Positions 37,816 to 59,036 of a stretch of 64,000 nucleotides of DNA are shown in pieces; the first letter of the stretch is position 1; every line of letters starts with the position of its first letter. A program made the translations under genes and the position numbers. Below the pieces are notes generated by a model that saw only the letters and a program-made list of their open reading frames with translations, did no database searches and was not told the DNA's origin. Source of the stretch: Polaribacter sp. SA4-10 (GTDB taxonomy: Bacteria > Bacteroidota > Bacteroidia > Flavobacteriales > Flavobacteriaceae); the NCBI RefSeq assembly GCF_002163835.1, contig NZ_CP019331.1:310001-374000 (forward strand). The letters run 5' to 3'.

Positions 37816-37961
37816 TATATTTAAGTTTTTGTCAAAACGCTTTGTCGACACTTTTGTGTATTTCGTCTTTATTTTACGTTTTTTTGTCATTTATAGCAAT
37901 TAATAGATTGTTTTTATTTTGTACTTTGCATACTAAATTTAATTTATAATACCCACATATA

Positions 37962-38375
37962 ATGCCTAAAAAACTTCGTATATTACTTATTGAGGATAAC
38001 TTAATAGAGATTATGAAAATGAAAAGAACTATTTCATTTTTAGAATTAGACCATTCAATACAAGAAGCAAAAAATGGAGTAGAAGCGTTAAAAATTTTAG
38101 AAGATAAAAGTAACTTACCTGATATTATTTTATTAGACTTAAACATGCCAAAGATTAGCGGCATAGAATTTTTAACTTTATTGAGAAATGATGAATACTT
38201 AAAACATATACCTACAATAATATTAACTACTTCTGATAATCAAAAAGATTTGTTTGAGTGTTATCGATTAGGTGCTTCAGGTTATATTTTAAAACCTTTA
38301 AAATATGAAGATTATGTTAATAAGATTAAAATTGTATTGGCCTATTGGAGCGTTAATGAATTAAAAGTACTATAA
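37962..38375 (+). CDS. Single-domain response regulator (first gene of H-NOX/FIST operon)
   Basis: The product has 137 residues, a lone CheY-like receiver. Acidic pocket: Glu11-Asp12 in LLIEDNLIEI. Phospho-acceptor: Asp59 in IILLDLNMP. Switch residue: Thr in IILTTSDNQ. Conserved Lys in YILKPLKYED. The helix after strand 1 (IEIMKMKRT) resembles receivers that pair with phytochrome-type or PAS kinases (Rcp1-like). It has no output domain, so it probably shuttles phosphate or acts by binding a partner. It is one base from the H-NOX gene. The -7 region TACTTTG at 37922 is the nearest promoter candidate, one base short of consensus. Confidence 0.88.
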   Translation: MPKKLRILLIEDNLIEIMKMKRTISFLELDHSIQEAKNGVEALKILEDKSNLPDIILLDLNMPKISGIEFLTLLRNDEYLKHIPTIILTTSDNQKDLFECYRLGASGYILKPLKYEDYVNKIKIVLAYWSVNELKVL

Positions 38376-38376
38376 A

Positions 38377-38916
38377 ATGAAAGGTATAATTTTTACGGAA
38401 TTTTTAGATTTAGTTGAAGAAAAATTTGGGTTAGAAATGGTAGATAAAATTATTACTCAATCTAAATTAAAGTCAGAAGGAGTATATACAGCTGTAGGTA
38501 CATATAGCTTTTCTGAAATGTTACAATTACTAGAAAACTTAAGTAATAATACAGGTGTCTCTATAGATCAATTACTATTAGTATATGCAGAACATTTCTT
38601 TTCTGTAATAGAAACAAACTACCCTGGTCTTTTGAATACCTATAATGACCCAATAGAGATGTTAGCATCTATTGAAGATCATATACATGTAGAAGTTCAG
38701 AAAATATATCCAGATGCAGAACTACCAACTTTTATTGTAGAAGAAAAAACTAAAAACTCTATCGTAATGATATACAAATCTAGTAGAGCAATGCATCATT
38801 TTGGATTAGGATTAATGAATAAAACCTTCGAACATTTTAATAGCACTGCCTCTATAGTTCTTGAAAAAATTAAAGAAGATGGTACAGAAGTGAGGTTTAT
38901 TGTAAATAAAAATTAA
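38377..38916 (+). CDS. H-NOX haem nitric-oxide sensor
   Basis: The product has 179 residues, a complete H-NOX domain. It begins MKGIIFTEFLDLVEEKFGLE. The proximal haem ligand lies in EDHIHVEVQKIYPDAELP (His104 by alignment with IHxEV; His102 is two residues away). The YxSxR haem-propionate clamp is Tyr133, Ser135 and Arg137 in MIYKSSRAMHHF. As in proteobacterial stand-alone H-NOX proteins, it should bind NO on ferrous haem and control a histidine kinase in the same operon. It is followed 13 bases later by such a kinase. NO selectivity is expected because no distal-pocket Tyr is apparent, but this is inference. Confidence 0.93.
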   Translation: MKGIIFTEFLDLVEEKFGLEMVDKIITQSKLKSEGVYTAVGTYSFSEMLQLLENLSNNTGVSIDQLLLVYAEHFFSVIETNYPGLLNTYNDPIEMLASIEDHIHVEVQKIYPDAELPTFIVEEKTKNSIVMIYKSSRAMHHFGLGLMNKTFEHFNSTASIVLEKIKEDGTEVRFIVNKN

Positions 38917-38929
38917 TTACCCAAAATTA

Positions 38930-40915
38930 ATGAGCCAAAATAAAGTAGACATATTAGAACGTGCTCTAAAACGTGAAAAAGCTGCTAGAAAATCTGCGGA
39001 AAAAATTCTTGAAGATAAATCTAGAAAATTATATCTTCTTTCTGAAGAATTAAAGGATACCAATAGTAAGTTAGAAGACTTACTAGATGAAAAATCTTCT
39101 ACTCTAAAAGGGATATTTGAAAACATTAATGATGCCTATTTAGTGATGGATTTGCATGGTAATGTTTTAAAAATGAATGAAGTTGCCATCAATCTTTTTG
39201 GATATAATATAGAAAATGAAAAATTTAATGTTACAGATATTATCTATAAAGATGATTTAGAATATGCTTATAATTCTTTTTCTCAATTAAATGAGCAAGG
39301 ATTTTTTAATGGGTATACAGCTAGAATTATTACTAAAAATAAACAGGTTAAATGGTTGCAAATAAATGGTACACTTATTTATGATAAAAATAAGAAGCCA
39401 ATAGCAGCTCAAGGTATTGTTAGAGATATCACCAAAGACAAAGAAGCTGGAGATTTACTTATGGAATCTAAAAACAGACTCTCTGCTCTTGTTTTAAATC
39501 TAAATAGTGGTGTTATTTTAGAAGACGAAAACAGAAAAATAGTTTTATCTAATACAAAATTTTGTGAATTATTAAATATTGATGCTCAACCTAATGATTT
39601 AATTGGGATGGATTGCAAACTTGCCTCAGAACAAAACAAAGTGCAATTTAAAGAGCCATTGTCTTTTGTAAAGAGAATAAATGAAATAGATGCGGCTAAA
39701 GTAGCCGTGTTTGGAGACCAGTTGGAGATGCTAGATGGTAAGGTGCTAGAAAGAAATTATATGCCAATAATAGTTGGAGGAAAATTAAATGGCTATTTAT
39801 GGACTTTTAGGGATATTTCTCTTGAAAAAAAATATAATTTAAGTCTAGAAGCACAAAAAGAAAAGTATAGTAGCATTATTGCTAATATGAATTTAGGATT
39901 GGTAGAAGTAAACAAAGAAAAAGAAATTTTGATGGTAAATCAAAGTTTTATAGAAATGTCTGGTTATAGTGAAAAAGAATTATTAGGTAAAATTGAAGGA
40001 GATTTTTTTTCATTAGAAAATGCTGTTAAAGTTAGTGAAAACGAACACTTTAGACGCCTTAAAGATGTATCTAGTTCATATGAATTAAAAATAAAAAACA
40101 AAAAAGGAAAAATTAGACATTGGCTTGTAAGTGGTGCTCCAAACTATGATTTATTTGGTAAAGTAATAGGTTCTATAGGAATACATTTAGACATTACTGA
40201 ACTTAAAAAGCTTCAACTACAGAAAGAAAATATTTTAAAAGAATTAGAAAATAGAAACAATGAATTGTCTGAATATGCACATATTGTTTCACATGACTTA
40301 AAATCACCTTTAAGAAGTATAGACGCATTAGTTTCATGGGTAAAAGCAGACAATGAGGGTAAAATTGATGAAGCAACACTTCAAAACTTAGGTCTAATAG
40401 AAACTACACTAGAAACAATGGAAAAGTTGATTTCTAACGTTTTAGAATATTCTAGTGCGGGTACAAATAAACATGAGGCTATAGATGTAGATTTAAATGA
40501 CACTTTAAGTAATTTAAAAAAGGTTTTATTTATTCCTAAGAATATATCTGTTAATGTATTAAAAAGTTTACCTATTATAAAAGGAGACCAAACTAAGTTT
40601 CAACAGTTGTTTCAAAACTTTATTAGTAATGCCATTAAGTTTTGTGATAAAGAAGTAGGGGTTGTAGATATAGATTATATAGATAATAAAACTTTTTATC
40701 AATTTTCTATAAAGGATAATGGTATTGGGATTGAAAAAAAATATCATGATAAAATTTTTAAAATATTTCATGCATTAGATAAAAGAGATGATTCTACGGG
40801 AATTGGCTTAGCCATTGTTAAGAAAATAATTACTTTATATGGAGGAGATATTTGGTTAGAAAGTGAGCCAAATAAAGGAACTACTTTCTATTTTACAATA
40901 AAAAAAATAAAATGA
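38930..40915 (+). CDS. PAS-domain sensor histidine kinase, probable H-NOX partner
   Basis: The protein has 661 residues and is soluble, with no membrane segments. An N-terminal coiled coil (ILERALKREKAARKSAEKIL, to about residue 60) is of the type seen in H-NOX-associated kinases. Three PAS-like domains follow (about 62-175, 180-300, 305-425). The HisKA has YAHIVSHDLKSPLRSI with phospho-His near residue 455. The HATPase has NAIKFCDKE (N box), DNGIGIEKKYHDKIF (G1) and STGIGLAIVKK (G2). Being cytoplasmic, it needs an internal sensor. The H-NOX protein encoded just upstream is the natural candidate. The ATGA overlap with the FIST gene shows translational coupling. Confidence 0.92.
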   Translation: MSQNKVDILERALKREKAARKSAEKILEDKSRKLYLLSEELKDTNSKLEDLLDEKSSTLKGIFENINDAYLVMDLHGNVLKMNEVAINLFGYNIENEKFNVTDIIYKDDLEYAYNSFSQLNEQGFFNGYTARIITKNKQVKWLQINGTLIYDKNKKPIAAQGIVRDITKDKEAGDLLMESKNRLSALVLNLNSGVILEDENRKIVLSNTKFCELLNIDAQPNDLIGMDCKLASEQNKVQFKEPLSFVKRINEIDAAKVAVFGDQLEMLDGKVLERNYMPIIVGGKLNGYLWTFRDISLEKKYNLSLEAQKEKYSSIIANMNLGLVEVNKEKEILMVNQSFIEMSGYSEKELLGKIEGDFFSLENAVKVSENEHFRRLKDVSSSYELKIKNKKGKIRHWLVSGAPNYDLFGKVIGSIGIHLDITELKKLQLQKENILKELENRNNELSEYAHIVSHDLKSPLRSIDALVSWVKADNEGKIDEATLQNLGLIETTLETMEKLISNVLEYSSAGTNKHEAIDVDLNDTLSNLKKVLFIPKNISVNVLKSLPIIKGDQTKFQQLFQNFISNAIKFCDKEVGVVDIDYIDNKTFYQFSIKDNGIGIEKKYHDKIFKIFHALDKRDDSTGIGLAIVKKIITLYGGDIWLESEPNKGTTFYFTIKKIK

Positions 40916-42057
40916 AAACGGTACAACTTAAAAGAAGTAAAAACTCAGGTTGGAAATATTTATCTAAAAAACTTAACTTAAAAAAACCTTTAGTTTTAGT
41001 TTTCGGAAATAGATTTTTATTGGAAGATGAAGCTATTTTTGAAGAAGTAAGAACACTTTTTAAAGAGGGGCATATTGTATTTGGCTCTTCTTCTGGAGAT
41101 ATTTCTTCAGAATCTGTTAATGATGATAGTATAACGATTACTGCAGTAGAATTTGAAAAAAGTAATTTTATAATCAAGACAGCTAATGTTTTAAAAGGAG
41201 CTTTAGAAGCTAAAATAGATAGTTTCTCTATTGGTAAAGAATTAATTAGTCAATTACCACAAGAAGGCTTAAAATATGTTTTTGTGCTTTCTGAAGGAAG
41301 TTTTGTAAACGGAAGTCAATTAACAAAAGGGATGAATGCTACAACTGATGATAATTTATTAATAACAGGTGCATTATGTGGGGATGCAGCAAGGTTTGAA
41401 AAAACCATTGCTTCTTATAATGAAAACCCAAAACCAGGAGAAATAGTTGCCATTGGTTTATATGGAGCATCTTTAGAAGTAACTTTTTCTATTAATGGAG
41501 GTTGGACACCTTTTGGGCCAGAAAGAATGGTTACAAAGTCTAAAGGAAATGTATTGTATGAATTAGATAATTTACCTGCTTTAGATTTATATAAGCAATA
41601 TTTAGGAGATAAAGCAAAAGAATTACCTAGTGCAGCATTATTGTATCCTTTAAAAGTGAAGTCTTCAAATGAAAAACAATCAATAGTTAGAACTATTTTA
41701 AACATAAATGAAGAAGATAATTCTATGATTTTGGCTGGAGATATTTTTGAAAACTCTGTAGTTCAATTAATGATGACGAATGTAGATAGTATTGTTAATG
41801 CAGCTGAAATTGCAGCACAAAATGCAGCAGAATCTAGAGTTGCTAAAGCAGAACTTGCCATTTTAGTAAGTTGTATTGGAAGAAAACTTGTGCTAGATCA
41901 AAGAGTAGAAGAAGAAGTAGAAGAAGTAATAGCGATTGTTGGAAATACAACAACAATAACGGGGTTATATTCTTATGGTGAAATTGCTCCTTTTATAGGA
42001 GAAAAAAGTTGTCAACTTCACAATCAAACAATGACCGTTACATTAATTAGCGAATAA
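40912..42057 (+). CDS. FIST-domain protein (NosP-type candidate NO/haem sensor)
   Basis: The product has 381 residues. FIST_N covers about residues 20-220 and includes FGSSSGDISSE, VLSEGSFVNGSQLTKGM and LITGALCGDAARF. FIST_C covers about 225-375, with WTPFGPERMVTK, LYELDNLPALDLYKQYLG, LAILVSCIGRKLVLDQR, ITGLYSYGEIAPF and CQLHNQTMTVT. Some FIST proteins (NosP) are haem-based NO sensors encoded beside histidine kinases. Location between two kinases and after an H-NOX gene supports that reading. Haem binding cannot be proved from sequence. It overlaps the kinase genes by 4 bases before and 1 base after. Confidence 0.9.
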   Translation: MKTVQLKRSKNSGWKYLSKKLNLKKPLVLVFGNRFLLEDEAIFEEVRTLFKEGHIVFGSSSGDISSESVNDDSITITAVEFEKSNFIIKTANVLKGALEAKIDSFSIGKELISQLPQEGLKYVFVLSEGSFVNGSQLTKGMNATTDDNLLITGALCGDAARFEKTIASYNENPKPGEIVAIGLYGASLEVTFSINGGWTPFGPERMVTKSKGNVLYELDNLPALDLYKQYLGDKAKELPSAALLYPLKVKSSNEKQSIVRTILNINEEDNSMILAGDIFENSVVQLMMTNVDSIVNAAEIAAQNAAESRVAKAELAILVSCIGRKLVLDQRVEEEVEEVIAIVGNTTTITGLYSYGEIAPFIGEKSCQLHNQTMTVTLISE

Positions 42058-43100
42058 TGAATTCTCTGTTAAAAAGACAAATAAGAAAGTTGCTACCTCA
42101 AGAGCTTCACTCTAATAAAGATTTAGAGAAGTTTTTAGATGCTATAGATAGATCTTATACTACTTCAGGAGAACAGTTTTTAATGCTACAAAGAGCAACA
42201 ACTATTAGCTCTGAAGAACTTTTTAACGCCAATAGAAAATTAAAGGAAGAATCAAATTCACAGAAAATAATAATTGACAAGCTTAGAGATTTAGTAGATA
42301 CTTTAAAGTTTTATGATTTAGAAGAGGACAATACAATTGAAAATTTTGATACTTTAAAATTGGTTGATTTTATTGATAATCAAACCAAAGAAATTATTAA
42401 AATAAATAAGCAAAAAGATACCCTTTTAAGAAATTTAAAACTTCAAAATCAAGAACTAAATGATTATACCCATATGGTTTCTCATGATTTAAAGTCGCCT
42501 ATACAAAGTATAGATTTTTTAACTACTTTGATTGAAGAAGATTATAAAGGTGTTTTAGACAGTACTTGTAAAGAACATTTACTACTTATTAGAGAAAATG
42601 TAGAAAAAATGGATACTTTAGTAAAAGGTATTTTAGAATATTCTACAATTGGTAAAGTTGAGAGAGAAAAGTATGATCTAAATTTAGAAGCTATTGTAAA
42701 TGAAATCTTGATTAATAGTAAGAAAACAAAAGATATAAAATATATTATTCCAAATAAGTTACCAATAATTAAAGGAAACCGTTCTAGAATAGAACAATTA
42801 TTTTCACAATTAATAGAGAATGCCATTAAATTTAATGATAAAGAAAAAGGTATTATAGAAATTGGTTTTACTGAAGAAACTAATTTCTGGAAATTTTATA
42901 TTAAAGATAACGGTAAAGGAATTGAGGAACAGTATTTTGATAAAATTTTTATTGCATTTCAAAAATTAGAAAATGATTATAAATCAACAGGAATAGGGTT
43001 AGCTATTGTTAAAAAAATAGTTGAATCATTTAAAGGGAAAATTTGGTTAGAATCTAAGTTAAATGTGGGGTCAACTTTTTACTTTAGCATAAAAAAATAA
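42057..43100 (+). CDS. Second soluble sensor histidine kinase, probable FIST partner
   Basis: The product has 347 residues. A helical N-terminal region (about 1-125, with a coiled coil at EELFNANRKLKEESNSQKII) has no PAS or membrane segment. The HisKA has YTHMVSHDLKSPIQSI, with the phospho-His near residue 142. The HATPase has NAIKFNDKEKG, DNGKGIEEQYFDKIF and STGIGLAIVKK. The kinase core resembles that of the neighbouring PAS kinase, suggesting duplication. The N-terminal layout matches kinases found beside FIST/NosP genes. It starts by TAATG overlap with the FIST gene, so the two are likely produced in fixed ratio. Confidence 0.9.
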   Translation: MNSLLKRQIRKLLPQELHSNKDLEKFLDAIDRSYTTSGEQFLMLQRATTISSEELFNANRKLKEESNSQKIIIDKLRDLVDTLKFYDLEEDNTIENFDTLKLVDFIDNQTKEIIKINKQKDTLLRNLKLQNQELNDYTHMVSHDLKSPIQSIDFLTTLIEEDYKGVLDSTCKEHLLLIRENVEKMDTLVKGILEYSTIGKVEREKYDLNLEAIVNEILINSKKTKDIKYIIPNKLPIIKGNRSRIEQLFSQLIENAIKFNDKEKGIIEIGFTEETNFWKFYIKDNGKGIEEQYFDKIFIAFQKLENDYKSTGIGLAIVKKIVESFKGKIWLESKLNVGSTFYFSIKK

Positions 43101-43102
43101 AT

Positions 43103-43420
43103 ATGGAACAACCTAATTTAGAGTATGTAGATCAATTAGCTAGAGGAGATGAATCTATAAGAAAAACACTAATAGATGTTATAAAAACAGAGTTTCCAGA
43201 AGAGAGAAGTGATTATAACAAAAGTGTAAAAAACAAAGAATTTAAAAAAATAGAAGGAAATGTTCATCGACTTAAACATAAAATTAGTATTTTAGGACTT
43301 CAAAAGAGTTACAAAAGGGCTAATGAATTTGAACATAATCTTAGAAAGCATAGTTTAGAAGGAATTCAAGATTTTGAAAAAATTTTATTAGTTATCTCAG
43401 CATTCCTGAAAACTATATAA
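43103..43420 (+). CDS. HPt phosphotransfer protein
   Basis: The product has 105 residues, all helical. The HPt motif is NVHRLKHKISILGL, with His55 the phosphate acceptor and the HxLK...LG spacing intact. It would carry phosphate from one or both kinases to a receiver in the operon. It starts 2 bases after the kinase stop and is followed after 5 bases by the LytTR regulator, its probable target. Confidence 0.82.
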   Translation: MEQPNLEYVDQLARGDESIRKTLIDVIKTEFPEERSDYNKSVKNKEFKKIEGNVHRLKHKISILGLQKSYKRANEFEHNLRKHSLEGIQDFEKILLVISAFLKTI

Positions 43421-43425
43421 ATTTT

Positions 43426-44133
43426 ATGAATTGTATTATAATTGATGATGAAAAAATGGCAAGAGTTATTGTCAAAACTCTTTGCGATGAAATAGAAACA
43501 TTAGCCATTTTAGAACAGTTTAGTAGTGCAATTCATGCTATAAAATATTTAAATGAACATGAAGTTGATCTAATTTTTTTAGACATACATATGCCAGACT
43601 TTACGGGCTTAGACTTTATTAAAACTTTAAAAAACCCACCAAAAATAATTTTTACTACCTCAGACCCTAAGTTTGCAATTGAAGCTTTTGAGTATGATTT
43701 TATTGTTGATTATTTATTAAAACCAATACAGCTTCCTCGTTTTAAAAAAGCAATACAAAAGGCAGAAAAAGCAGCAATAAATACTTCAGCTAAAAATACC
43801 AGTTTTAATAAAATAGAAAAAGAGAATGATTTTTATGTAAATATAGATCGTCGTTTAATTAAAATAGATCTACCTAGTGTTTATTTAATTGAAGCTAAAG
43901 GAGATTATATTAAAATAAAGACAGAGAATAAAGATTACATAGTACATTCTACACTTAAAAAAATTGAAGAAAAACTACCAGATTCTTTGTTCTTAAAAGT
44001 ACATCGTTCATTTATCATAAATATTAAGAAAATTATAGATATTGAAGATAACAGTGTCTTAATAATGAAAGATGTTGTACCTGTTAGTAGGTCTAAAAGA
44101 CCAGAGTTAATGAAAAGATTAGACTTACTTTAA
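43426..44133 (+). CDS. LytTR-family response regulator (operon output)
   Basis: The product has 235 residues. The receiver has Asp7-Asp8 (IIIDDEKMAR), the acceptor Asp53 (IFLDIHMPDF) and the Lys in DYLLKPIQLP. The C-terminal LytTR DNA-binding domain (about 135-235) reads FYVNIDRRLIKIDLPSVYLI, then YIVHSTLKKIEEKLPDSLFL and VHRSFIINIKKI. LytTR proteins bind tandem short repeats about one helical turn apart. One such repeat (TAAACTACA twice, 11-base period) starts 16 bases after this gene's stop, ahead of the T9SS gene at 44255, which may be a direct target. Confidence 0.92.
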   Translation: MNCIIIDDEKMARVIVKTLCDEIETLAILEQFSSAIHAIKYLNEHEVDLIFLDIHMPDFTGLDFIKTLKNPPKIIFTTSDPKFAIEAFEYDFIVDYLLKPIQLPRFKKAIQKAEKAAINTSAKNTSFNKIEKENDFYVNIDRRLIKIDLPSVYLIEAKGDYIKIKTENKDYIVHSTLKKIEEKLPDSLFLKVHRSFIINIKKIIDIEDNSVLIMKDVVPVSRSKRPELMKRLDLL

Positions 44134-44148
44134 TATTTGGTTTCCATT

Positions 44149-44168
44149 TAAACTACATGTAAACTACA
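44149..44168 (+). promoter_or_regulatory. Candidate LytTR binding site (tandem TAAACTACA, 11-base period)
   Basis: TAAACTACA occurs at 44149-44157 and 44160-44168, identical over 9 bases. Two short direct repeats at roughly one helical turn is the arrangement LytTR domains use. It is centred about 70 bases upstream of the -7 box of the next gene, a usual activator distance. Binding is inference. Confidence 0.45.
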
Positions 44169-44228
44169 ATTCGTCTATAGTTAAAATGTAAATAACGAAT
44201 AGTCAATATTTCATATAGACGTTGTATT

Positions 44229-44236
44229 TACTTTTG
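44229..44236 (+). promoter_or_regulatory. -7 box of the DUF3494/DUF4114 T9SS gene
   Basis: TACTTTTG matches TAnnTTTG, 18 bases before the ATG at 44255. The -33 region (ATATTTC) is weak, as expected for a promoter that needs an activator. Confidence 0.55.
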
Positions 44237-44254
44237 AGGTATAAACCTCATATC

Positions 44255-47200
44255 ATGAAAAAATTATTACTTATTTTTCTCTCAACAGTATTTACAACAA
44301 TAAATGCTCAAAAGAACCAATCATTTGAAAACACCAATCATCGAAGTACTTTAGAAGCAGTTGAAATTGATTTTGGTTCAGCGGCTAATTTTATACTCTT
44401 TACAGGAGCTGGAGCAGTAGCCAATACTGGTATTTCTACATTTACAGGCGATGTTGGATCTCATGTGGGAGCGATTGCTGGTTTTGGAGCCCCTTCAATT
44501 TTAAACGGAACTGTAGAAAGCGCCAACGCAATTACTTTACAAGCTCAAACAGATTTAGCTGCAGCGTGCGTTCAACTTCAAAATATACCAGCAACAATAA
44601 CAGATCACAGTGCAATTTTTGGCAGCATAATTGGGGAAACCATTTTCCCAGGGGTTTATGCTGTTGCAGCAGCTGTAGCTCTTACAGGAACTTTAACATT
44701 AGACGCTCAAGGAGATCCTGATGCGATGTTTATTTTTAAAATTACTGGGGCGCTTACCTCAGTAGCTGGTACTGAAGTTATATTGGCTAATGGAGCTTCC
44801 TCTGATAATGTTTATTGGATCGCTGTTGGTGCTGTTGCTTTGGGGGCTAATACAACAATGATTGGCACTGCAATAGGATATCCAGGGGCAGTTTCATTAG
44901 GAGCTGGAGGTTCTTTAGATGGTAGATTGTATTCTACGGTTGGTGCTATAGCAATTGATAGTACATTAGGTGCAATACCAATAGCCATTCCTTCTTATAA
45001 CTATCTTGGAGAATATACTTCAAATGGTACTCCTCTTTATTTAGAAGCACAAAGTGATGTGGTTTCTATAGAAACTCAAGAAATGATTAGCAATTCTTTG
45101 CCAGAAAGCTACCCGGTACCAGAATATAATCCTCAATATATTACCTCTGGATATGATACAGATTTAAAATTGAATGAAGATGGTGATGTTTGGGTAACTT
45201 TTGTAAGTGAAAGTTCTGATTACAGCAATGTTTTAGGTTTTTATACATATGATTTAAGTAACCCTATTGTATCAGTGCCGTCAAAAGATGATGTTACTAT
45301 TATTTTTCCAAATGTCTCTGCTTTAAATAGTGGAGGGGGGTTACAAATAGGAGATAAAGTAAAAATAGGATCTTTTAAAGCAGGAACTGGAATTGGATGG
45401 GTGCTGCTTAATGATGCTTGGAGTTCAAATGAAGGAAGTGTTGGAGATACTGTATTAGATTTATATTCTGATATTAATTTTAATCCAGAAACCGATGAAA
45501 CTTTAAGAACCCACAACGTTTTATTAAACGATTTAACTGACGAAAGAATTATTCTTGGGTTTGAAGATTCAAGAAGAGATGATGTTGATAATAGCCAAGA
45601 TTTTAATGATGCCGTTTTTTATATAACTGCAAGTCCTTATGAAGCAATTAATACAAATAACTTTGCCGATATGACACAGACTTCGGAAGTTACTTCAGGG
45701 AATGATGGTGGTTTAGAAAGTAATGGTGATTTAGCTAATTTAATTGCAAAGAGAAATTTTACAAGAAAAAAGGAAGGTAATAATATAAATAAAAAAGAGC
45801 AGCAATCTAATTTTAACAAGACGCAATTAAAAAGGAATACAAACACAAACTCATTAATAGGATATTTACCTGAAACAGGTATGTATAAAACAGAAACTTC
45901 TACAGTTTCTAGTCCAAGTGATTTATTAGCAATAACGAATGCTAAAGAAATATTTTCAATAGATTATTACCAAGGAGATGATAGAATTTCTGCTGTATTA
46001 GCGACTTCTACAGAAGGTTCTATATATGATCATTCAAAAGTTATTTGTGATAGATTAAATAATTCTAGTTTAGAAGATGTAAGAACTGTAAGTACTAGAG
46101 GTCATCAAATAATAAGTTCTAAAATTAAAAGAGCAACAGGAGAAATAGAATATACTTTAAGTTTTTCTATTAAAATGGATGGAATAGAAAATGAACTGTT
46201 TAGTTTTTGGAATATAGACCAATATCCAACAGGAGATTACCAAAACTATCAAATTTGGGGAAGTTCTTTTTCTCAAGTATTTTCAATTGCTAATTTTATT
46301 TTAGATAAGCATACAATTTTAAATGGATTAAACAGTACAATAATAGAAGGTGTTTTACCAAATGTATTTGTGAAATCTGGTAGTTATTCTAACGGAGTTA
46401 TTAATTTAAATTTGGTAAATAAAACGCAAGAAAAATCAGTTGATTTTGTAGGGAATATTGCAGAAACAGAAGTTTCTGATCATAACCAAGTATCAAATAC
46501 TTTTACATTGTCTGGTGCTTACAATGAAGTTTTATCAATACAAACAGGCGTTTTATTTGATATAGGTTTCTCTCTACAAACAGCTTCTTCACCTCAAAAA
46601 GATGCATTATATCTAGCAGATGGACCTTGGGGATTAGATTACTTAAAAGAATTTGCTTCTGTAAGTGAGTTTAGTGTAGATATTTCTGAAAGACAATATG
46701 ATGAAAATATTTATGAAGTAGATAGAAATGCAAGTGTATCTGGAGAGGTAAAAGGAAACATCAACTTATTTAGACATCTTTTACCAGGAGATCAAACTTT
46801 AGATGTATTAGATTATAGCTTTTTAAATTTCTTAATCACAAATAATGAAGCTGTAGAAATTGTTATAATGCAAGAAGGAGAAAGAGAATGGGAAAACAGA
46901 ATACGTTACACAGTGCCAGCTAATACAGAAGAAAAAGAATACACGATCTCTTTTAATGATTTTTTAGATGGAGAAGGAAATACTATAGAAATTACAAATA
47001 TTAAGACAATTGTTTTTTCAGTAATTGGAGATTACACAAACTATATACCTTATAGTGTTCAAATAAAAGACATGGCTTTTAAAGCTAGTAATGCTTTAGA
47101 TGTTGAGGATTTTGAAACAGAGGAGAACTTAAAGTTATCTAATTATCCAAATCCATTTTCAAATTCTACAACAATAAGATTACCAATGAACTCTGAATTT

Positions 47201-47377
47201 GCTCAAATCAAAGTATTTGATTTATTAGGAAGAACGGTAGATTTTAAAAAGATATCTACAGAAAACACAAAAAGAAAAATACAATACAATGCGCCACAAT
47301 TAAAAAGTGGTATTTATAAATACATTTTAAAAGACGATACTAACAAATCGTATTCTGGAACTTTTATTATTAATTAG
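44255..47377 (+). CDS. T9SS-secreted protein with DUF3494 (ice-binding-like) and DUF4114 domains
   Basis: The protein has 1040 residues. The start ATG 44255 gives a clean signal peptide (KKLLLIFLSTVFTTINAQ); the upstream TTG at 44222 adds 11 residues and is rejected. DUF3494 covers about residues 35-245: STFTGDVGSHVGAIAGF, ALTGTLTLDAQGDPDAMFIF and LGAGGSLDGRLYS are its beta-helix signatures. DUF4114 lies at about 350-450 (IGWVLLNDAW, FEDSRRDDVDNSQDFNDAVF, a Ca-binding-like acidic run). A large unassigned region follows. The C-terminus (LSNYPNPFSNSTTIRLPM... SGIYKYILKD) is a type A T9SS tail. It may be an ice adhesin or biofilm matrix protein. Its 3' end is duplicated downstream. Confidence 0.85.
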   Translation: MKKLLLIFLSTVFTTINAQKNQSFENTNHRSTLEAVEIDFGSAANFILFTGAGAVANTGISTFTGDVGSHVGAIAGFGAPSILNGTVESANAITLQAQTDLAAACVQLQNIPATITDHSAIFGSIIGETIFPGVYAVAAAVALTGTLTLDAQGDPDAMFIFKITGALTSVAGTEVILANGASSDNVYWIAVGAVALGANTTMIGTAIGYPGAVSLGAGGSLDGRLYSTVGAIAIDSTLGAIPIAIPSYNYLGEYTSNGTPLYLEAQSDVVSIETQEMISNSLPESYPVPEYNPQYITSGYDTDLKLNEDGDVWVTFVSESSDYSNVLGFYTYDLSNPIVSVPSKDDVTIIFPNVSALNSGGGLQIGDKVKIGSFKAGTGIGWVLLNDAWSSNEGSVGDTVLDLYSDINFNPETDETLRTHNVLLNDLTDERIILGFEDSRRDDVDNSQDFNDAVFYITASPYEAINTNNFADMTQTSEVTSGNDGGLESNGDLANLIAKRNFTRKKEGNNINKKEQQSNFNKTQLKRNTNTNSLIGYLPETGMYKTETSTVSSPSDLLAITNAKEIFSIDYYQGDDRISAVLATSTEGSIYDHSKVICDRLNNSSLEDVRTVSTRGHQIISSKIKRATGEIEYTLSFSIKMDGIENELFSFWNIDQYPTGDYQNYQIWGSSFSQVFSIANFILDKHTILNGLNSTIIEGVLPNVFVKSGSYSNGVINLNLVNKTQEKSVDFVGNIAETEVSDHNQVSNTFTLSGAYNEVLSIQTGVLFDIGFSLQTASSPQKDALYLADGPWGLDYLKEFASVSEFSVDISERQYDENIYEVDRNASVSGEVKGNINLFRHLLPGDQTLDVLDYSFLNFLITNNEAVEIVIMQEGEREWENRIRYTVPANTEEKEYTISFNDFLDGEGNTIEITNIKTIVFSVIGDYTNYIPYSVQIKDMAFKASNALDVEDFETEENLKLSNYPNPFSNSTTIRLPMNSEFAQIKVFDLLGRTVDFKKISTENTKRKIQYNAPQLKSGIYKYILKDDTNKSYSGTFIIN

Positions 47378-48031: not shown

Positions 48032-50107
48032 TTATTTTTTATATAAAGGTTTACTTAAAAAATACCATTTAAATCGGAAGCCAAATTCTGTATATGTAAA
48101 ACCATTTGAACCTGCATTGGCAACTGCAGAAGCAATGTTACTTTGAAGTCCGTATAAATTTATGAGCGCTCTTTCAGAAAACTTATATCCTAAATTAGCT
48201 TGAACTCTATAAGTACTTAAACCATCATCATCTTCTATATATTGCAAACCTGTAGCAGCTGTTAATCCATAAAACCATTCTTTATTTTTAGCAGCAGCTA
48301 CAGGTTTTATAAGATTAATAAATATTTCTACAGCGTTAAATTTACTAGGACTAAAATAAGTATTTGGTACCTGTAGTTTAAAAGATAAATTTTGATAATT
48401 AATACCACCTTTTATTGACGGTTTTGCTAAGATGTTATAATACAAAGAAGTAAACAACAAATTCCTTGCATTTTCATCACTTTGCCATGTATAATAATAC
48501 TGCGTAAACCAACCTAAATTAAAGTTAGTATTTAGGCTGTAATTTAGAATAAGGTTGTTTTGTACAATTTGTTCATCTAATAATGCAGCGTTAAAATTTT
48601 GAATATCTCTTTTATAACCTAACTCTAAATTCTGAAGTTTAAATGGTTTTATGTTAAGAGAAATGTCTGTTAAGAGTTGACTGTATTTACTTTCATCAGA
48701 ATCAGAAGACGTAACTCCAAAACTTCCTTTTAGGGTTAAATTATTTTTTAATTGATAAGAAGCACCTAGTAATAAGTTATTTGTTGTAGCCTTTAAACCA
48801 GTAGTACTATTAGATGTTGTTCTATAATTATAAGTAGCTAAAAGTTTAAATTTAGTTGAAAAAGGAATTTCTGTTTTTACATCGTATGCATCTGCTTCAT
48901 TGTTTCCGTTATCAAAAGAGTGAGAAAATTTTGTTTCTACAAAAGGAGTAAAACTTAAATCTAATTGTTTTATAAAGTTCGTTGCATCTTTTTGTTTCTT
49001 ATAAAAAACTAAAGTGTTTTCAGCACTTTTATAAGCTTCATTAATATAACCAGAAGCTTTTAAAACATTTGCTTTTCCAAGATTACCATCAAAAGAAGCA
49101 CTGTCTTTTTCTAAGATTAAGTTGTAATCCTTCAAACTTTTTTTAAAGTCGCTTTTATAAACATTCAGCGTTGCTCTTAAAGAAAGCATCCAATTTTCAA
49201 GTTCTTTACGAGTATCAAATAATTTATTAATTTCTGCATCTGCTAAAGAATACTTTTTATTCCAAATTAAAGCTTGAACATATCTTTCTATAGCTTGATC
49301 ATTTATAGCTTTAGGAGTCTCTTTATGAACACTTTCTAAGGCTTTTTTACTGTACTCTAAAGCCGTTTTATCATCAGCATTTAAATGATGCACTAAAGAG
49401 ATTCCTATTAATGAACTTATTTTATTTCCAGGTATTTTTCCTATTACATCATATGTTTTTAATGCTTTATCTATCTGTTTAGAAATTAAATACAAATTTG
49501 CAAGGTTTAATAATGTTTCTTTATCCTCTTTAAAAGAGGTGAAATTTTCTTTTAAAATTGTTTCAGCTTCATCATATTTTTGATCGGTTACTTTTGTACT
49601 CGCCAAACCTAATCTCATATATTTTTTAGAAACCAATGCATTTGGATTCCCTGGTAAAACAACCAACGCCTTATCTACAGTAATTAAAGCATCTTCAAAC
49701 TCTTTTAAATTAGACAACGTATTTGCATACCCTAATAGTGCAGCAAAACTTTTATCGTTCTCTTTTAGTAGTGTTTGATAATAGACTTTTGCATCAGGAT
49801 AATTTTTATCCCAAAGCATGGACTCTGCGTAATTTAATTTAACTTCAAAATCGGACGGAAAATCTTTTAGAAGATTTGTAAAAAGAGTTACCGCTTTTTT
49901 TGCCTTACCATTTAAACCAATAGCTCTTCCGTAACAAAGTCTTGCTGTTTTATTTGTTGGGTATGTTTTTAAAATTTCTTTAAAAAAGGTTTCTGCTTGT
50001 TTGTATTTACCAGTTTCTAAATACGTAAAGCCTTCTTTCATATCTTGTGAAAGCACACAAAATGTAGAAAAAAGGAATGATATATATACAAGATACTTCA
50101 ATTTCAT
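48032..50107 (-). CDS. TPR and outer-membrane beta-barrel protein, candidate polysaccharide export component
   Basis: The product has 691 residues. A signal peptide (YLVYISFLFSTFCVLSQ) precedes about ten TPR-like helical repeats from residue 25 to 385 (GFTYLETGKYKQAETFFKEI, LLGYANTLSNLKEFEDALIT and others). The last 300 residues are strand-rich and end FTYEFGFRFKWYF-like, as in a beta-barrel. Periplasmic TPR plus outer-membrane barrel in one chain is the plan of PgaA/BcsC-type exporters of secreted polysaccharides. The adjacent flippase and glycosyltransferases support that, but no sequence motif proves it. It converges on the T9SS gene and its duplicated end. Confidence 0.72.
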   Translation of the reverse strand: MKLKYLVYISFLFSTFCVLSQDMKEGFTYLETGKYKQAETFFKEILKTYPTNKTARLCYGRAIGLNGKAKKAVTLFTNLLKDFPSDFEVKLNYAESMLWDKNYPDAKVYYQTLLKENDKSFAALLGYANTLSNLKEFEDALITVDKALVVLPGNPNALVSKKYMRLGLASTKVTDQKYDEAETILKENFTSFKEDKETLLNLANLYLISKQIDKALKTYDVIGKIPGNKISSLIGISLVHHLNADDKTALEYSKKALESVHKETPKAINDQAIERYVQALIWNKKYSLADAEINKLFDTRKELENWMLSLRATLNVYKSDFKKSLKDYNLILEKDSASFDGNLGKANVLKASGYINEAYKSAENTLVFYKKQKDATNFIKQLDLSFTPFVETKFSHSFDNGNNEADAYDVKTEIPFSTKFKLLATYNYRTTSNSTTGLKATTNNLLLGASYQLKNNLTLKGSFGVTSSDSDESKYSQLLTDISLNIKPFKLQNLELGYKRDIQNFNAALLDEQIVQNNLILNYSLNTNFNLGWFTQYYYTWQSDENARNLLFTSLYYNILAKPSIKGGINYQNLSFKLQVPNTYFSPSKFNAVEIFINLIKPVAAAKNKEWFYGLTAATGLQYIEDDDGLSTYRVQANLGYKFSERALINLYGLQSNIASAVANAGSNGFTYTEFGFRFKWYFLSKPLYKK

Positions 50108-50249
50108 AATATTTTTTTTTATTAATTGCTACTTAAGCAATAGCGTTTGATCATTTATCTAATGTAAATTGTTTTTCATCGAAAAATTAAAAGAGTTATC
50201 TTTTGTGATTGGATATTTGTAATGATATTAACCATAAATATATAACAAA

Positions 50250-53040: not shown

Positions 53041-54558
53041 TTACTTAGAAATATATTTATAAGATAATTTTTTCTTACCCGTATTAGAAATAAATCCGAA
53101 TTTTTTTTGAGGATTTGTTCGCCAAGGAAGTCTTCCTAAGACTTCTTTTGGCACTTTATCAAAATCATACAAAGTCCATGAAATAAAGGGGATAGCATCT
53201 TTTGTCAGGATTTTTTGTATTTCTTTATAATAGTTGGCTTGTTTTTCTTCAGAGCCAACAAAAGGTCTCCATAAACCACCATAAGAAGACAATCCAAATT
53301 CTTGTAAAATGATAGGTTTGTTATTTTTAATTTTATTTTTTAATTTGTGATATTCTACATCAAAATCAGCAAGTTTATCATAATAATGAAAAGAAACTAC
53401 ATCTACCTTATCTTGTAAAATAGTAGCACTTCTTGTGTTAGACCAACCAATAGTTACAGGGTGTTTTTTATCTATAGATTTTATTAAAATAATCATAAAA
53501 TCTAACCAAGCAGTTACATTTTCTTTTCCTCTAGAATCAAAATCTAAGTTAGGTTCATTTTTAACATCCCAAGCTAAAATAGCTTCATGATCTTTAAATT
53601 TTTCAACAATTATTTCTGCATGTCTATGGTTTAATGTCCAATCTAAAACATCATAATTACCGTAAAAATCGAATAAAGTGATAACAACTTTTAACTCCTC
53701 TTCTTTTGCTGCATCTAAAACTTTCTGTAGTTTTTCTATCTTATCAAATTTTACATTAGCTTTTCCAAAATCTTCATAAGGCACAAAGATTCTAATTGAA
53801 TTTAAATTAGCTTCTTTAATAATTTTAAAATCGGTTTCAATAATATGAATATCAAATTCATCACCATACATATTCCAAGGTGTTGCCTGTGGATAATAGT
53901 TTATACCTTTTATATCAGTAGTAGCAATTGTTGTTTTTTGAGGTGTTTCTTTATATTTTTCTGAAGCCTCTTTTACCATATGTCTAATTCGCCAAAAACC
54001 ATCTTCTAGCAATAAAACAAATCTATAGGTTGAAACTTCTGTAGCTTCTAAAATTAATTTAGTGTCTTTAAATACTTTTTTATACTCTAAAACATTTGTG
54101 TCTTTTAAGATTATTAATTGTCCGTCTTCACTAAAAAACTCAATATCTAAGTTATGCTGTAGGGTAGTAGATTCTACCGAAATCTTATTAGATTTGTTAA
54201 AATCTAATATATTGTAAATATTTTTTCTTGCATTTTTAGTAAAATAATCTTTTATACCAGCTCTTGTATTTGTTTTGTAGGCAACTTGTTTTACGTACCA
54301 AGCATCTAAATAATCGTTTTCAACAGCATTTATTTTTTGCTGACTTATATTTCTCCCTTCATTTCCATCATTCTTCCAAGAAATTTTCGGTAAATATTGC
54401 TCTACTTTTTTAACTTCTGTGTGCAACATTTTACTTCTATCTGCACCTGTATTTAAAAAACCGTACAAAGAACTTACTAAGAATAAAAGAATACCAATTA
54501 TAAAAAGGTAAGTACCCATTAAAATACCTCTAAGAATTTTTCTATTCGTTTTTACCAT
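53041..54558 (-). CDS. Membrane-anchored GH5-like glycoside hydrolase with NTF2-like domain
   Basis: The product has 505 residues. A single N-terminal membrane helix (GILMGTYLFIIGILLFLVSS) anchors it. Residues about 75-190 form an NTF2/SnoaL-like domain. A (beta/alpha)8 hydrolase fold follows, with GINYYPQATPWNMYGDEFD, the acid/base Glu in AWDVKNEPNLDF and the nucleophile Glu in PIILQEFGLSSYGG, the pattern of GH5/GH-A enzymes. It probably trims or cuts the exopolysaccharide made by this locus, as cellulases and PgaB-like enzymes do elsewhere. It overlaps the upstream gene by 7 bases, so it belongs to the 58855-53041 operon. Confidence 0.83.
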   Translation of the reverse strand: MVKTNRKILRGILMGTYLFIIGILLFLVSSLYGFLNTGADRSKMLHTEVKKVEQYLPKISWKNDGNEGRNISQQKINAVENDYLDAWYVKQVAYKTNTRAGIKDYFTKNARKNIYNILDFNKSNKISVESTTLQHNLDIEFFSEDGQLIILKDTNVLEYKKVFKDTKLILEATEVSTYRFVLLLEDGFWRIRHMVKEASEKYKETPQKTTIATTDIKGINYYPQATPWNMYGDEFDIHIIETDFKIIKEANLNSIRIFVPYEDFGKANVKFDKIEKLQKVLDAAKEEELKVVITLFDFYGNYDVLDWTLNHRHAEIIVEKFKDHEAILAWDVKNEPNLDFDSRGKENVTAWLDFMIILIKSIDKKHPVTIGWSNTRSATILQDKVDVVSFHYYDKLADFDVEYHKLKNKIKNNKPIILQEFGLSSYGGLWRPFVGSEEKQANYYKEIQKILTKDAIPFISWTLYDFDKVPKEVLGRLPWRTNPQKKFGFISNTGKKKLSYKYISK

Positions 54559-55766
54559 AGTTTTAAACTTTTAAATTCTTTCTTAATTCCTGCTGTTTCA
54601 ATAATAATTTTGTACAAATTATTTTCAAAAATATTTGGGTCTAAATAAAAGGTTGAAAAACCATTTTCAGATTCTTTATAAAGCTCTTTAATTAGTACAT
54701 CGTTTTGGTAAATAGATAGTTTTATAGATAATCCATCAGGAATAATTTGTTCCATAAAACTTTTTAAAGGTCCAATTTTTATGCTGCGATTTTGCTCACT
54801 AAAAGAAACACGATACTCTTCAATTACTTTTTTGTAGTTAACTGTTATTGTATTACTTTCTGAAATACCAATAAAGTAAGCTTTTACTTTCCATGTTTCT
54901 TCAAAATCTGGATGCACAATTTTTGAATGTGCAACACCATTTAAAGTAATTCCAGCAGTTTTTAAAATTCCTCCTTTTTTATTGGTAATGTAAAATTCAA
55001 TATAACTACCATCGCTAACAATATTTTTATTTCTGTCTGTTATGGTTGATGTAAAAAAGGTTGTAATTTGATTTCCATCTGCATATTCATGATTTCTATG
55101 TATAAAAATTTCAAAATTTGTACCAATTGCTGGCATAATATTTACATCAAATTCTTTAGAATTTAAACCAAATGATTCTGATGATATAATCATTCTGCCA
55201 CTTTTTTTAGGCGAAAAAATTTTTTTGTATCCAATTAATTTATCTGTTAAAATAGTTGCTGATTTCTCTGATTTTAAAAACTGATGTTTCACTGCAACTT
55301 TACTATTATCTCTAATAGGATTGTCTAAACTATCTGTTGGTATTACCACTAGCATTGTGTAATCTAACCCACCAGCATCCATACTTGGTGGCCCTAAATA
55401 AGTTTCTATTGTTTTTGGTTGTTGTTGAGAAAGAATGAAAATATTCCCAGAAATTTCATCAGGAGCATTTATAATTTTCCAAGATAATGTTCCTCTTTTT
55501 TTTGATAAAAAACTAGGAATTTCAAAGCGCATTTTTTTATCTATAACTTTAGGGTTTACAACAGTAGAACCATAACTATTAGAACAATATAATTGAAAAT
55601 AAGTTTCTTTTTTCACTTTAAATTCGAGTGTAATTTTATCACCTACAACAAATTCGTTTTGTGCAGAAAGTAAAGAAATAGAAGAACTGGTAGAAGTTTC
55701 TTGAGCGAGAAAAGAAACAATTACTAGTTGAAAAAAAAGCAGAAAAAAGTATTGTTTTAACTTCAT
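54552..55766 (-). CDS. Secreted beta-sandwich protein of the exopolysaccharide locus
   Basis: The product has 404 residues with a signal peptide (YFFLLFFQLVIVSFLAQ). Strand-rich throughout, with Ig-like or macroglobulin-like spacing: EFVVGDKITLEFKVKKETYF near the start and SDGSYIEFYITNKKGGIL in the middle. No catalytic motif is recognised. It is joined to the upstream GT-C-like gene by a 1-base TAATG overlap and to the GH5 gene by a 7-base overlap. A structural role in guiding or anchoring the polymer in the periplasm is only inference. Confidence 0.65.
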   Translation of the reverse strand: MKLKQYFFLLFFQLVIVSFLAQETSTSSSISLLSAQNEFVVGDKITLEFKVKKETYFQLYCSNSYGSTVVNPKVIDKKMRFEIPSFLSKKRGTLSWKIINAPDEISGNIFILSQQQPKTIETYLGPPSMDAGGLDYTMLVVIPTDSLDNPIRDNSKVAVKHQFLKSEKSATILTDKLIGYKKIFSPKKSGRMIISSESFGLNSKEFDVNIMPAIGTNFEIFIHRNHEYADGNQITTFFTSTITDRNKNIVSDGSYIEFYITNKKGGILKTAGITLNGVAHSKIVHPDFEETWKVKAYFIGISESNTITVNYKKVIEEYRVSFSEQNRSIKIGPLKSFMEQIIPDGLSIKLSIYQNDVLIKELYKESENGFSTFYLDPNIFENNLYKIIIETAGIKKEFKSLKLW

Positions 55767-58855: not shown

Positions 58856-59036
58856 TTTAATAATTAGGTCTTTTTCAATAGGGTAAATATAAATCTTTTA
58901 AATGATGGTTAAAACTTTATTTGACTTTGGAAAATTACCGTTCATCTATATAAAAATGTATTTAATGAAATAATGTTATTTTTTTTAAATAAACAAAACT
59001 ACTTTTGATGTATATTTAGATTTTTAAAATTTATAT

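What the first reader, a model, noticed from the sequence alone, without database searches (positions are those of the whole stretch)
37922..44133. Seven-gene operon combining two NO/haem sensor types with a full phosphorelay
Receiver, H-NOX, soluble PAS histidine kinase, FIST (NosP-like) protein, second soluble kinase, HPt and LytTR regulator are encoded with gaps of -4 to +13 bases. H-NOX and FIST/NosP proteins are known separately as NO sensors that control adjacent kinases. Here each is followed immediately by its own kinase, and one HPt and one transcription factor close the operon. The simplest reading is that two independent haem inputs converge through HPt on the LytTR protein, with the stand-alone receiver as phosphate sink or second output. 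The haem ligand and YxSxR clamp of H-NOX and all phospho-acceptor residues are intact. I know of no description of this exact arrangement in Bacteroidota, but cannot search.
Basis: partly seen in the sequence, partly recalled or inferred. Interest (0 to 1): 0.88.

Follow-up and report, generated by a model that had tools for sequence, protein, structure and literature searches.

The report
Modular NO-sensor phosphorelay operon
Seven neighbouring genes in a marine flavobacterium appear to plug two separate sensors, one of them probably for nitric oxide, into a single shared signalling relay and gene switch that probably controls its own operon and nearby surface genes.

Summary
The seven genes are present as described: REC, H-NOX, PAS kinase, FIST, kinase, HPt, LytTR regulator. 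The operon is common. Of 105 H-NOX loci fetched from one family, 51 hold this order and 38 hold R-H-K-P-L without FIST and its kinase. Kordia algicida has it, and its H-NOX is the crystallised 6bdd. Elsewhere only F-K, only a PAS kinase, or an extra kinase sits between R and P-L. The sensors look like plug-ins on one trunk.

One relative fuses kinase, REC and HPt, followed by LytTR. That makes the lone receiver the likely middle step, not a sink. Kinases beside FIST share an N-terminal domain (17 of 18; 0 of 103 H-NOX-adjacent kinases).

New: a 21-bp-spaced direct repeat of LytTR type before the operon and, in many loci, before T9SS-adhesin and polysaccharide-type genes. The window's copy is degenerate. 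The genome has no GGDEF match, arguing against the usual NO/c-di-GMP route. FIST's ligand, phosphate flow and phenotype are untested. New variant of a known kind.

The parts
37838..37876 (+). candidate LytTR operator: two 18-nt half-sites at 21-bp spacing, starting 124 bp before the REC start codon
   Evidence: PWM dimer score 18.0, best of the 64 kb; mean 0.00 such sites in 60 shuffled windows. Second half weak (5.5), and missed by the 3-mismatch pattern scan of the own genome
37962..38375 (+). R: stand-alone receiver, probable relay intermediate (D59)
   Evidence: PF00072 82.7 bits; D59 in 100/100
38377..38916 (+). H: H-NOX haem-NO sensor (H102, YKSSR, Ala71)
   Evidence: PF07700 135.5 bits; 85% identical to Kordia algicida H-NOX, PDB 6bdd
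38930..40915 (+). K1: soluble PAS histidine kinase next to H-NOX (H455)
   Evidence: PAS, HisKA, HATPase_c; H455 103/103
40912..42057 (+). F: FIST_N + FIST_C protein, NosP-like, ligand untested
   Evidence: PF08495 130.6 and PF10442 118 bits; best fold match FBXO22 (model pLDDT 70.6)
42057..43100 (+). K2: soluble kinase next to FIST (H143), with an N-terminal domain typical of FIST-adjacent kinases
   Evidence: HisKA + HATPase_c; N-terminal profile hits 17 of 18 kinases beside FIST genes outside this operon and 0 of 103 K1 N-termini
43103..43420 (+). P: HPt phosphotransfer protein (H55)
   Evidence: Pfam Hpt 20.3 bits, below cut-off; AF2 pLDDT 97.2; best PDB matches are HPt domains, TM 0.78
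43426..44133 (+). L: REC-LytTR transcription factor (D53)
   Evidence: PF04397 76.9 + PF00072 65 bits; D53 92/92
44167..44184 (+). strong single half-site upstream of the surface-protein gene (no good partner at 21 bp)
   Evidence: best monomer score of the window, 19.7; none >= 19 in 60 shuffles
44222..47377 (+). probable output: ice-binding-like / DUF4114 / T9SS-tail surface protein (ATG at 44255 is the likelier start)
   Evidence: Pfam; homologue (single-linkage cluster) in 39 of 105 loci, preceded by a dimer score >= 10 in 34 of 39
50151..50189 (+). weaker dimer site between a TPR gene (48032-50107, -) and a polysaccharide flippase gene (50554, +)
   Evidence: score 12.9; Pfam of neighbours
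58917..58955 (+). weak dimer site, essentially one half, upstream of a REC-glycosyltransferase-2 gene (59037)
   Evidence: score 14.7 = 1.1 + 13.6; halves scoring 13 or more occur 0.53 times per shuffled window; Pfam

Best explanation
A split, multi-input phosphorelay. Input 1: H-NOX binds NO on haem and changes the activity of kinase K1. Input 2: the FIST protein (NosP-like; ligand NO, haem or something else) changes the activity of kinase K2. Both kinases phosphorylate the stand-alone receiver R, R passes phosphate to the HPt protein P, and P passes it to the LytTR regulator L. L binds a 21-bp-spaced direct repeat in front of its own operon (autoregulation) and at nearby genes for a T9SS-secreted surface protein and surface polysaccharide, so the output is probably surface attachment. 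Shown by sequence: parts, residues, conserved order, interchangeable sensor modules on a constant R...P-L trunk, kinase-REC-HPt fusions in relatives, the conserved repeat and where it lies. Inferred: NO as the signal in this species, phosphate flow, L binding the repeat, the sign of regulation, and the attachment phenotype.
For: Trunk and inputs: 51 of 105 fetched H-NOX loci contain R-H-K-F-K-P-L, 38 of 105 R-H-K-P-L. R-F-K-P-L without H-NOX between in L264, L265 and L287, and a second F-K in L295. A third kinase in L196 and L199. R-K-P-L with neither sensor in 9 of 20 loci fetched around HPt matches: 5 in genomes without H-NOX or FIST matches, 4 in genomes with H-NOX elsewhere. Relay order: L188 has H-NOX, then one PAS-HisKA-HATPase-REC-HPt protein, then LytTR at -4; L186 a similar fusion; L062 too, with HPt below cut-off; L143 reads H-K-R-P-L. 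Co-occurrence: strong HPt match in 99 of 105 H-NOX genomes and 14 of 194 others (my cut-off, related genomes). Pairing: 17 of 18 FIST-adjacent kinases share the K2 N-terminus, 0 of 103 K1. K2's best match among its genome's other kinases is K1. Operator: near-identical 8-mers 21 bp apart in 70 of 100 R-upstream regions against 14.7 expected. PWM dimer >= 10 before the surface-protein gene in 34 of 39 and beside the TPR gene in 17 of 27, 0.0 expected; before R in 63 of 68 named R-H loci and, at >= 12, in 5 of 9 R-K-P-L loci. Strict pattern: 12 of 29 H-NOX genomes, 0 of 20 without. LytTR sites: repeats of 9-11 nt separated by 11-13 nt (PMC4847170 passage).
Against: No biochemistry. The strict operator pattern was absent from 17 of 29 H-NOX genomes, the window's own included, and from the R-upstream region of 4 of 9 R-K-P-L loci even by matrix at 12. 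The window's surface-protein gene has only a half-site, and that gene family is near only 39 of 105 operons, so outputs vary. The 94 of 100 matrix count upstream of R is circular in part, as the matrix was trained there. FIST's haem ligand is unknown: H370 is the only well-conserved His, and the model is mediocre (pLDDT 70.6). R-H-K stands without P-L beside it in L164, L165 and L194; P-L lies elsewhere in the genomes of L164 and L194 but no strong HPt was found for L165's genome. Outside the family only 1 of 14 fetched loci (L180) has the seven-gene order. Direct K-to-L transfer is not excluded.
Confidence: 0.7

Rival explanations
1. FIST is not a second NO sensor. It senses another ligand (free haem, an amino acid or another small molecule), so the operon integrates NO with a different cue through the same relay.
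For: No haem-ligating residue could be established; H370 is also kept in 14 of 14 FIST proteins outside the operon, so it marks no special class. No NosP structure is among the PDB rows shown. A paper title has Burkholderia thailandensis NosP detecting haem (reference entry, paper not read). Presence of FIST changes at least 9 times on well-supported branches of the R+P+L tree, which suits a non-redundant input.
Against: Characterised bacterial NosP proteins are described as binding haem and NO and controlling an adjacent kinase (PMC12570481 passages). FIST and H-NOX are linked in 58 of 68 genomes holding both, which suits a shared theme.
Confidence: 0.35
2. Each kinase phosphorylates LytTR directly; R and P form a drain in which P carries phosphate back to R.
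For: REC-LytTR proteins are usually partnered directly with a kinase, and receiver sinks exist in other systems (both recalled).
Against: R and P are kept together with L across R-H-K-P-L, R-F-K-P-L and R-K-P-L operons, and relatives fuse K-REC-HPt in the forward order.
Confidence: 0.15
3. R is a separate output acting on another target, such as gliding or secretion machinery, with HPt only fine-tuning.
For: R is a single-domain receiver; a CheY-like receiver encoded with Legionella Hnox2 has an unknown downstream signal (PMC11237717 passage).
Against: HPt needs an Asp donor and neither kinase here carries a REC; no separate R stands beside H-NOX in L186 and L188, where REC is fused into the kinase.
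Confidence: 0.08

Closest known systems
Vibrio NO/quorum-sensing relay: H-NOX-HqsK (V. harveyi, V. parahaemolyticus) and NosP-VpsS (V. cholerae) to LuxU to LuxO
   Same: An H-NOX or NosP protein controls a soluble hybrid kinase, and phosphate passes through one HPt (LuxU) to a transcription factor (PMC6769237 passages).
   Different: There the kinases are hybrids, and the passages describe H-NOX and NosP inputs in different species, ending in LuxO and quorum sensing. Here REC is a separate gene, both inputs share one operon, and the end point is a LytTR factor with its own local sites.
Kordia algicida H-NOX (PDB 6bdd; Hespen et al. 2018, seen only as a reference entry; paper not held)
   Same: Its gene lies in the same R-H-K-F-K-P-L operon; the window's H-NOX is 85% identical and both have alanine at position 71.
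   Different: I saw no description of its operon, kinase, HPt or LytTR partner in what I could search.
NosP-kinase systems (Legionella NosP-NahK-NarR, Burkholderia NosP-NosK-NosR)
   Same: A FIST/NosP protein encoded with its own kinase (PMC12570481 and PMC11237717 passages).
   Different: Those end in c-di-GMP enzymes or a degenerate HD-GYP regulator; this genome has no GGDEF match.
Spo0F-Spo0B-Spo0A type split phosphorelay (recalled)
   Same: Several kinases feed one stand-alone receiver, then a phosphotransferase, then a DNA-binding regulator.
   Different: P resembles ordinary HPt domains, and L is REC-LytTR rather than Spo0A.
H-NOX genome-neighbourhood network, group 1 (PMC8738867 section 10)
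   Same: Already lists FIST genes near H-NOX.
   Different: That section does not describe the operon, the HPt/LytTR trunk or an operator.

Membership tests
H-NOX | HNOB domain with proximal His and YxSxR haem motif | tested here: met
   PF07700 135.5 bits; H102 and YKSSR
H-NOX | haem and NO binding | not testable with these tools
   85% identical to a crystallised H-NOX, but not measured for this protein
NosP (haem-binding FIST) | FIST_N plus FIST_C domains | tested here: met
   PF08495 and PF10442 above cut-off
NosP (haem-binding FIST) | adjacent dedicated kinase | tested here: met
   K2 N-terminal domain shared with 17 of 18 kinases beside other FIST genes, 0 of 103 K1
NosP (haem-binding FIST) | haem and NO binding with an identified ligand | tested here: inconclusive
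   H370, C321 and C367 are conserved candidates; model pLDDT 70.6; binding itself not testable here
four-step phosphorelay (HK-REC-HPt-RR) | all four phospho-acceptors present and conserved | tested here: met
four-step phosphorelay (HK-REC-HPt-RR) | relay order His-Asp-His-Asp | tested here: inconclusive
   supported by K-REC-HPt fusion plus LytTR in L188; no phosphotransfer data
HPt protein | helix bundle carrying a conserved phospho-His | tested here: met
   AF2 pLDDT 97.2; best PDB matches HPt domains; H55 97/97. Pfam score is below its cut-off
LytTR response regulator | REC + LytTR domains | tested here: met
   both above cut-off
LytTR response regulator | binding to a direct repeat at about two helical turns | tested here: inconclusive
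   a 21-bp-spaced repeat is conserved at the operon; binding not tested
Vibrio LuxU/LuxO NO relay | hybrid kinases carrying their own REC | tested here: not met
   K1 and K2 have no REC domain
NO to c-di-GMP signalling | GGDEF/EAL output enzymes | tested here: not met
   no GGDEF match in the own genome nor in a 39-genome draw that includes it; EAL and HD-GYP not searched

The most novel reading that the evidence does not exclude
Flavobacteria have a c-di-GMP-free route from nitric oxide to surface attachment: a phosphorelay trunk (R...HPt-LytTR) with its own operator and a local surface-protein/polysaccharide regulon, into which sensor-kinase cassettes (PAS kinase, H-NOX-kinase, FIST-kinase) are plugged and swapped as interchangeable inputs, up to three kinases per operon.
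Probability: 0.55. Interest if true: 0.75.

Novelty: new variant of a known kind. Interest (0 to 1): 0.62.

Why it matters
In the papers I saw, NO control of bacterial surface life runs mainly through c-di-GMP enzymes or Vibrio quorum sensing. Here the genome has no GGDEF match, yet H-NOX is kept with a transcription factor whose predicted sites lie at its own promoter and, in many relatives, at surface-protein and polysaccharide-type genes. The constant trunk with swappable sensor cassettes is a natural experiment in how one relay accepts new inputs. It also gives the crystallised Kordia algicida H-NOX (6bdd) a concrete set of partners and a defined DNA site, all testable in vitro.

Tried and rejected
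Rfam and tRNA scans of the window gave nothing. NCBIfam gave no match for H-NOX, FIST or HPt. The generic scan found 53 promoter-like sites against 38.6 (sd 7.2) in shuffles and 1 terminator-like site against 1.2; it does not cover flavobacterial promoters. The TAnnTTTG element (recalled) lay at a fixed 43 bp from the operator in only 5 of 94 loci, so no promoter is claimed. The idea that K1's N-terminal helix is an H-NOX-only docking motif was dropped: by eye a similar helix is present in 8 of 13 kinases of trunk loci without H-NOX in them. FIST haem-site prediction was dropped for lack of a reliable model. The sign of regulation and the NO source were not pursued.

Counting limits. The 299-genome and 395-genome samples are the tool's own draws. 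Of 109 H-NOX rows, one low-scoring row with stops (G076) was left out, and 3 places on short contigs were not fetched, leaving 105 loci. The 58 linked FIST rows were all fetched; of the 59 unlinked, 14 (13 loci). In the phylum draw H-NOX was in 27 and FIST in 89 of 395 genomes, and 20 stretches were fetched. Genes were called by profiles seeded with the window's proteins, not by hand; neighbour families are single-linkage clusters. The 80 named loci are the best of 421, found through FIST, so they cannot give the frequency of FIST. The E cut for a strong HPt match (5e-20 or better) was mine, and 11 further genomes had weaker matches. The matrix was trained on the 100 R-upstream regions; the named loci overlap those genomes in part. 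K1 was tested for the K2 N-terminal domain on its first 190 residues.

Literature: ten searches in an open-licence library; I saw listings, passages and one section, no whole paper. Most subscription papers are missing there.
Full report
WHAT IS THERE. Seven + strand genes, 37962-44133, encode REC, H-NOX, PAS kinase, FIST, kinase, HPt and REC-LytTR, with gaps of -4 to +13. The phospho-acceptor and haem-motif residues are present and conserved in the fetched relatives. The one doubtful gene call, HPt (Pfam 20.3 bits against a cut-off of 24.6), is supported by a confident helix-bundle model (pLDDT 97.2) whose best PDB matches are HPt domains. The FIST model is weaker (70.6), but its best match is FBXO22, which carries a FIST region (recalled; match), and both Pfam FIST domains are above cut-off.

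HOW COMMON. In 299 genomes of the family, H-NOX occurs in 105 and FIST in 87. Of the 68 that hold both, 58 have them within 12 kb on one strand. Of 105 fetched H-NOX loci, 51 contain R-H-K-F-K-P-L, 38 contain R-H-K-P-L, and 16 are cut by contig ends or differ. Outside the family I fetched 14 loci with H-NOX or FIST; one, L180, has the full order. Among the best 80 of 421 named loci found through FIST, 63 read exactly as seven genes. One is Kordia algicida OT-1, whose H-NOX matches PDB 6bdd at 179 of 179 positions. A same-genus genome carries a contig of the same length (148,426), with FIST at the same place, as one titled uncultured Tenacibaculum sp., so the window probably comes from that genus. 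The operon is thus ordinary for these bacteria in presence, though I found no description of it.

MODULAR INPUTS, CONSTANT TRUNK. The end genes R and P-L stay while the middle varies: H-K (38 loci); H-K-F-K (51); F-K only in L264, L265 and L287, the last followed by a separate R-H-K-L set; F-K twice in L295; a third kinase in L196 and L199. Of 20 loci fetched around HPt matches, 9 read R-K-P-L with neither sensor: L324, L326, L327, L332 and L336 from genomes without H-NOX or FIST matches, and L337, L338, L341 and L342 from genomes with H-NOX elsewhere. On a tree of R+P+L, 89 rows, the presence of FIST needs 20 changes, at least 9 forced by well-supported branches; shuffled labels need 29 on average, so the trait is partly clustered. 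A strong HPt match is found in 99 of 105 H-NOX genomes and in 14 of 194 others (related genomes are not independent). Exceptions: R-H-K without P-L beside it in L164, L165 and L194, with P-L elsewhere for L164 and L194.

RELAY ORDER. Neither K1 nor K2 has a receiver domain, and kinase-to-HPt His-to-His transfer is not known chemistry (established knowledge), so a receiver is needed between them. In L188, another family, H-NOX is followed by one protein with PAS, HisKA, HATPase, REC and HPt, then LytTR at -4. L186 has the same fusion, and L062 too with an HPt score below cut-off.

WHO PAIRS WITH WHOM. A profile of the K2 N-terminus matches 17 of 18 kinases beside FIST genes outside the operon, hybrid kinases in other gene orders included, and none of 103 K1 N-termini. 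This ties FIST to K2 and, by exclusion and adjacency only, H-NOX to K1. K2's best match among the other kinases of its genome is K1, 46%, in line with a shared partner. Two more kinases without a receiver gene within 1.5 kb score nearly as high.

OPERATOR AND OUTPUT. Upstream of R, 8-mers repeated at a 21-bp step with at most one mismatch occur in 70 of 100 loci against 14.7 expected; no other step from 9 to 26 exceeds 17. In the same scan the 21-bp step gave 13 of 39 against 5.1 before the surface-protein gene and 9 of 27 against 4.7 beside the TPR gene. The unit is CCATTCRTCKACACTWAA. This is the layout of LytTR sites (PMC4847170 passage; autoregulated LytTR operons in PMC6193735 passages). 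A matrix from the R regions (94 of 100 there, partly circular) finds dimers scoring 10 or more before the surface-protein gene in 34 of 39 loci and beside the TPR gene in 17 of 27, with 0.0 expected; before R in 63 of 68 named loci and before solo F-K pairs in 4 of 5. At 12 or more it finds them before R in 5 of 9 R-K-P-L loci. With a strict pattern, 12 of 29 genomes with H-NOX and 0 of 20 without have a site; by coordinates 12 of the 13 sites lie just upstream of the operon and one downstream of it. In the window the only three dimer sites scoring 12 or more lie before the operon (37838), beside the TPR/flippase genes (50151) and before a REC-glycosyltransferase gene (58917); the best half-site lies before the surface-protein gene (44167). 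Shuffles gave no dimer at 12 and no half-site at 19. These sites are degenerate, the last dimer is essentially one half, and the strict pattern found none in this genome.

WHY NOT c-di-GMP. In the papers seen, H-NOX and NosP systems mostly end in c-di-GMP enzymes or Vibrio LuxU/LuxO (PMC8738867 section 10 and passages; PMC6769237 passages; PMC11237717 passages). This genome has no GGDEF match, nor has any other of a 39-genome draw. EAL and HD-GYP were not searched.

VERDICT. Observation confirmed. Best reading: a two-input, probably autoregulated, split phosphorelay acting on surface genes, 0.7. The least certain steps are the FIST ligand and the phenotype. It is a new variant of known NO-sensing relays.

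Noticed in passing
window 59037-60179: A receiver domain joined to a family 2 glycosyltransferase in one protein, with a weak LytTR-type site 120 bp upstream.
   Followed up: partly
L196 and L199: A third kinase gene between K2 and HPt in two genomes.
   Followed up: partly
L287 1242-8829: Two relays side by side: R-F-K-P-L followed by R-H-K-L cut by the locus end, as if the two inputs had been separated.
   Followed up: partly
L323 (genome G123): An open frame of at least 2331 aa with a kinase core, running off the fetched stretch, directly before HPt and LytTR in a genome without H-NOX or FIST matches; its HPt scores next to the window's own in that sample.
   Followed up: no
window 54552-58855: Two genes (404 and 1029 aa) in the polysaccharide-like region with no Pfam match at 0.001.
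   Followed up: no
genomes G069, G101, G225, G261 (places): Close-set groups of four lower-scoring FIST genes in genomes without an H-NOX match; perhaps another FIST subfamily.
   Followed up: no
L063, L075, L105, L118, L120, L162: A separate receiver plus a 394-413 aa regulator encoded downstream of the LytTR gene; a STAS-domain family lies downstream of it in some loci such as L118.
   Followed up: no
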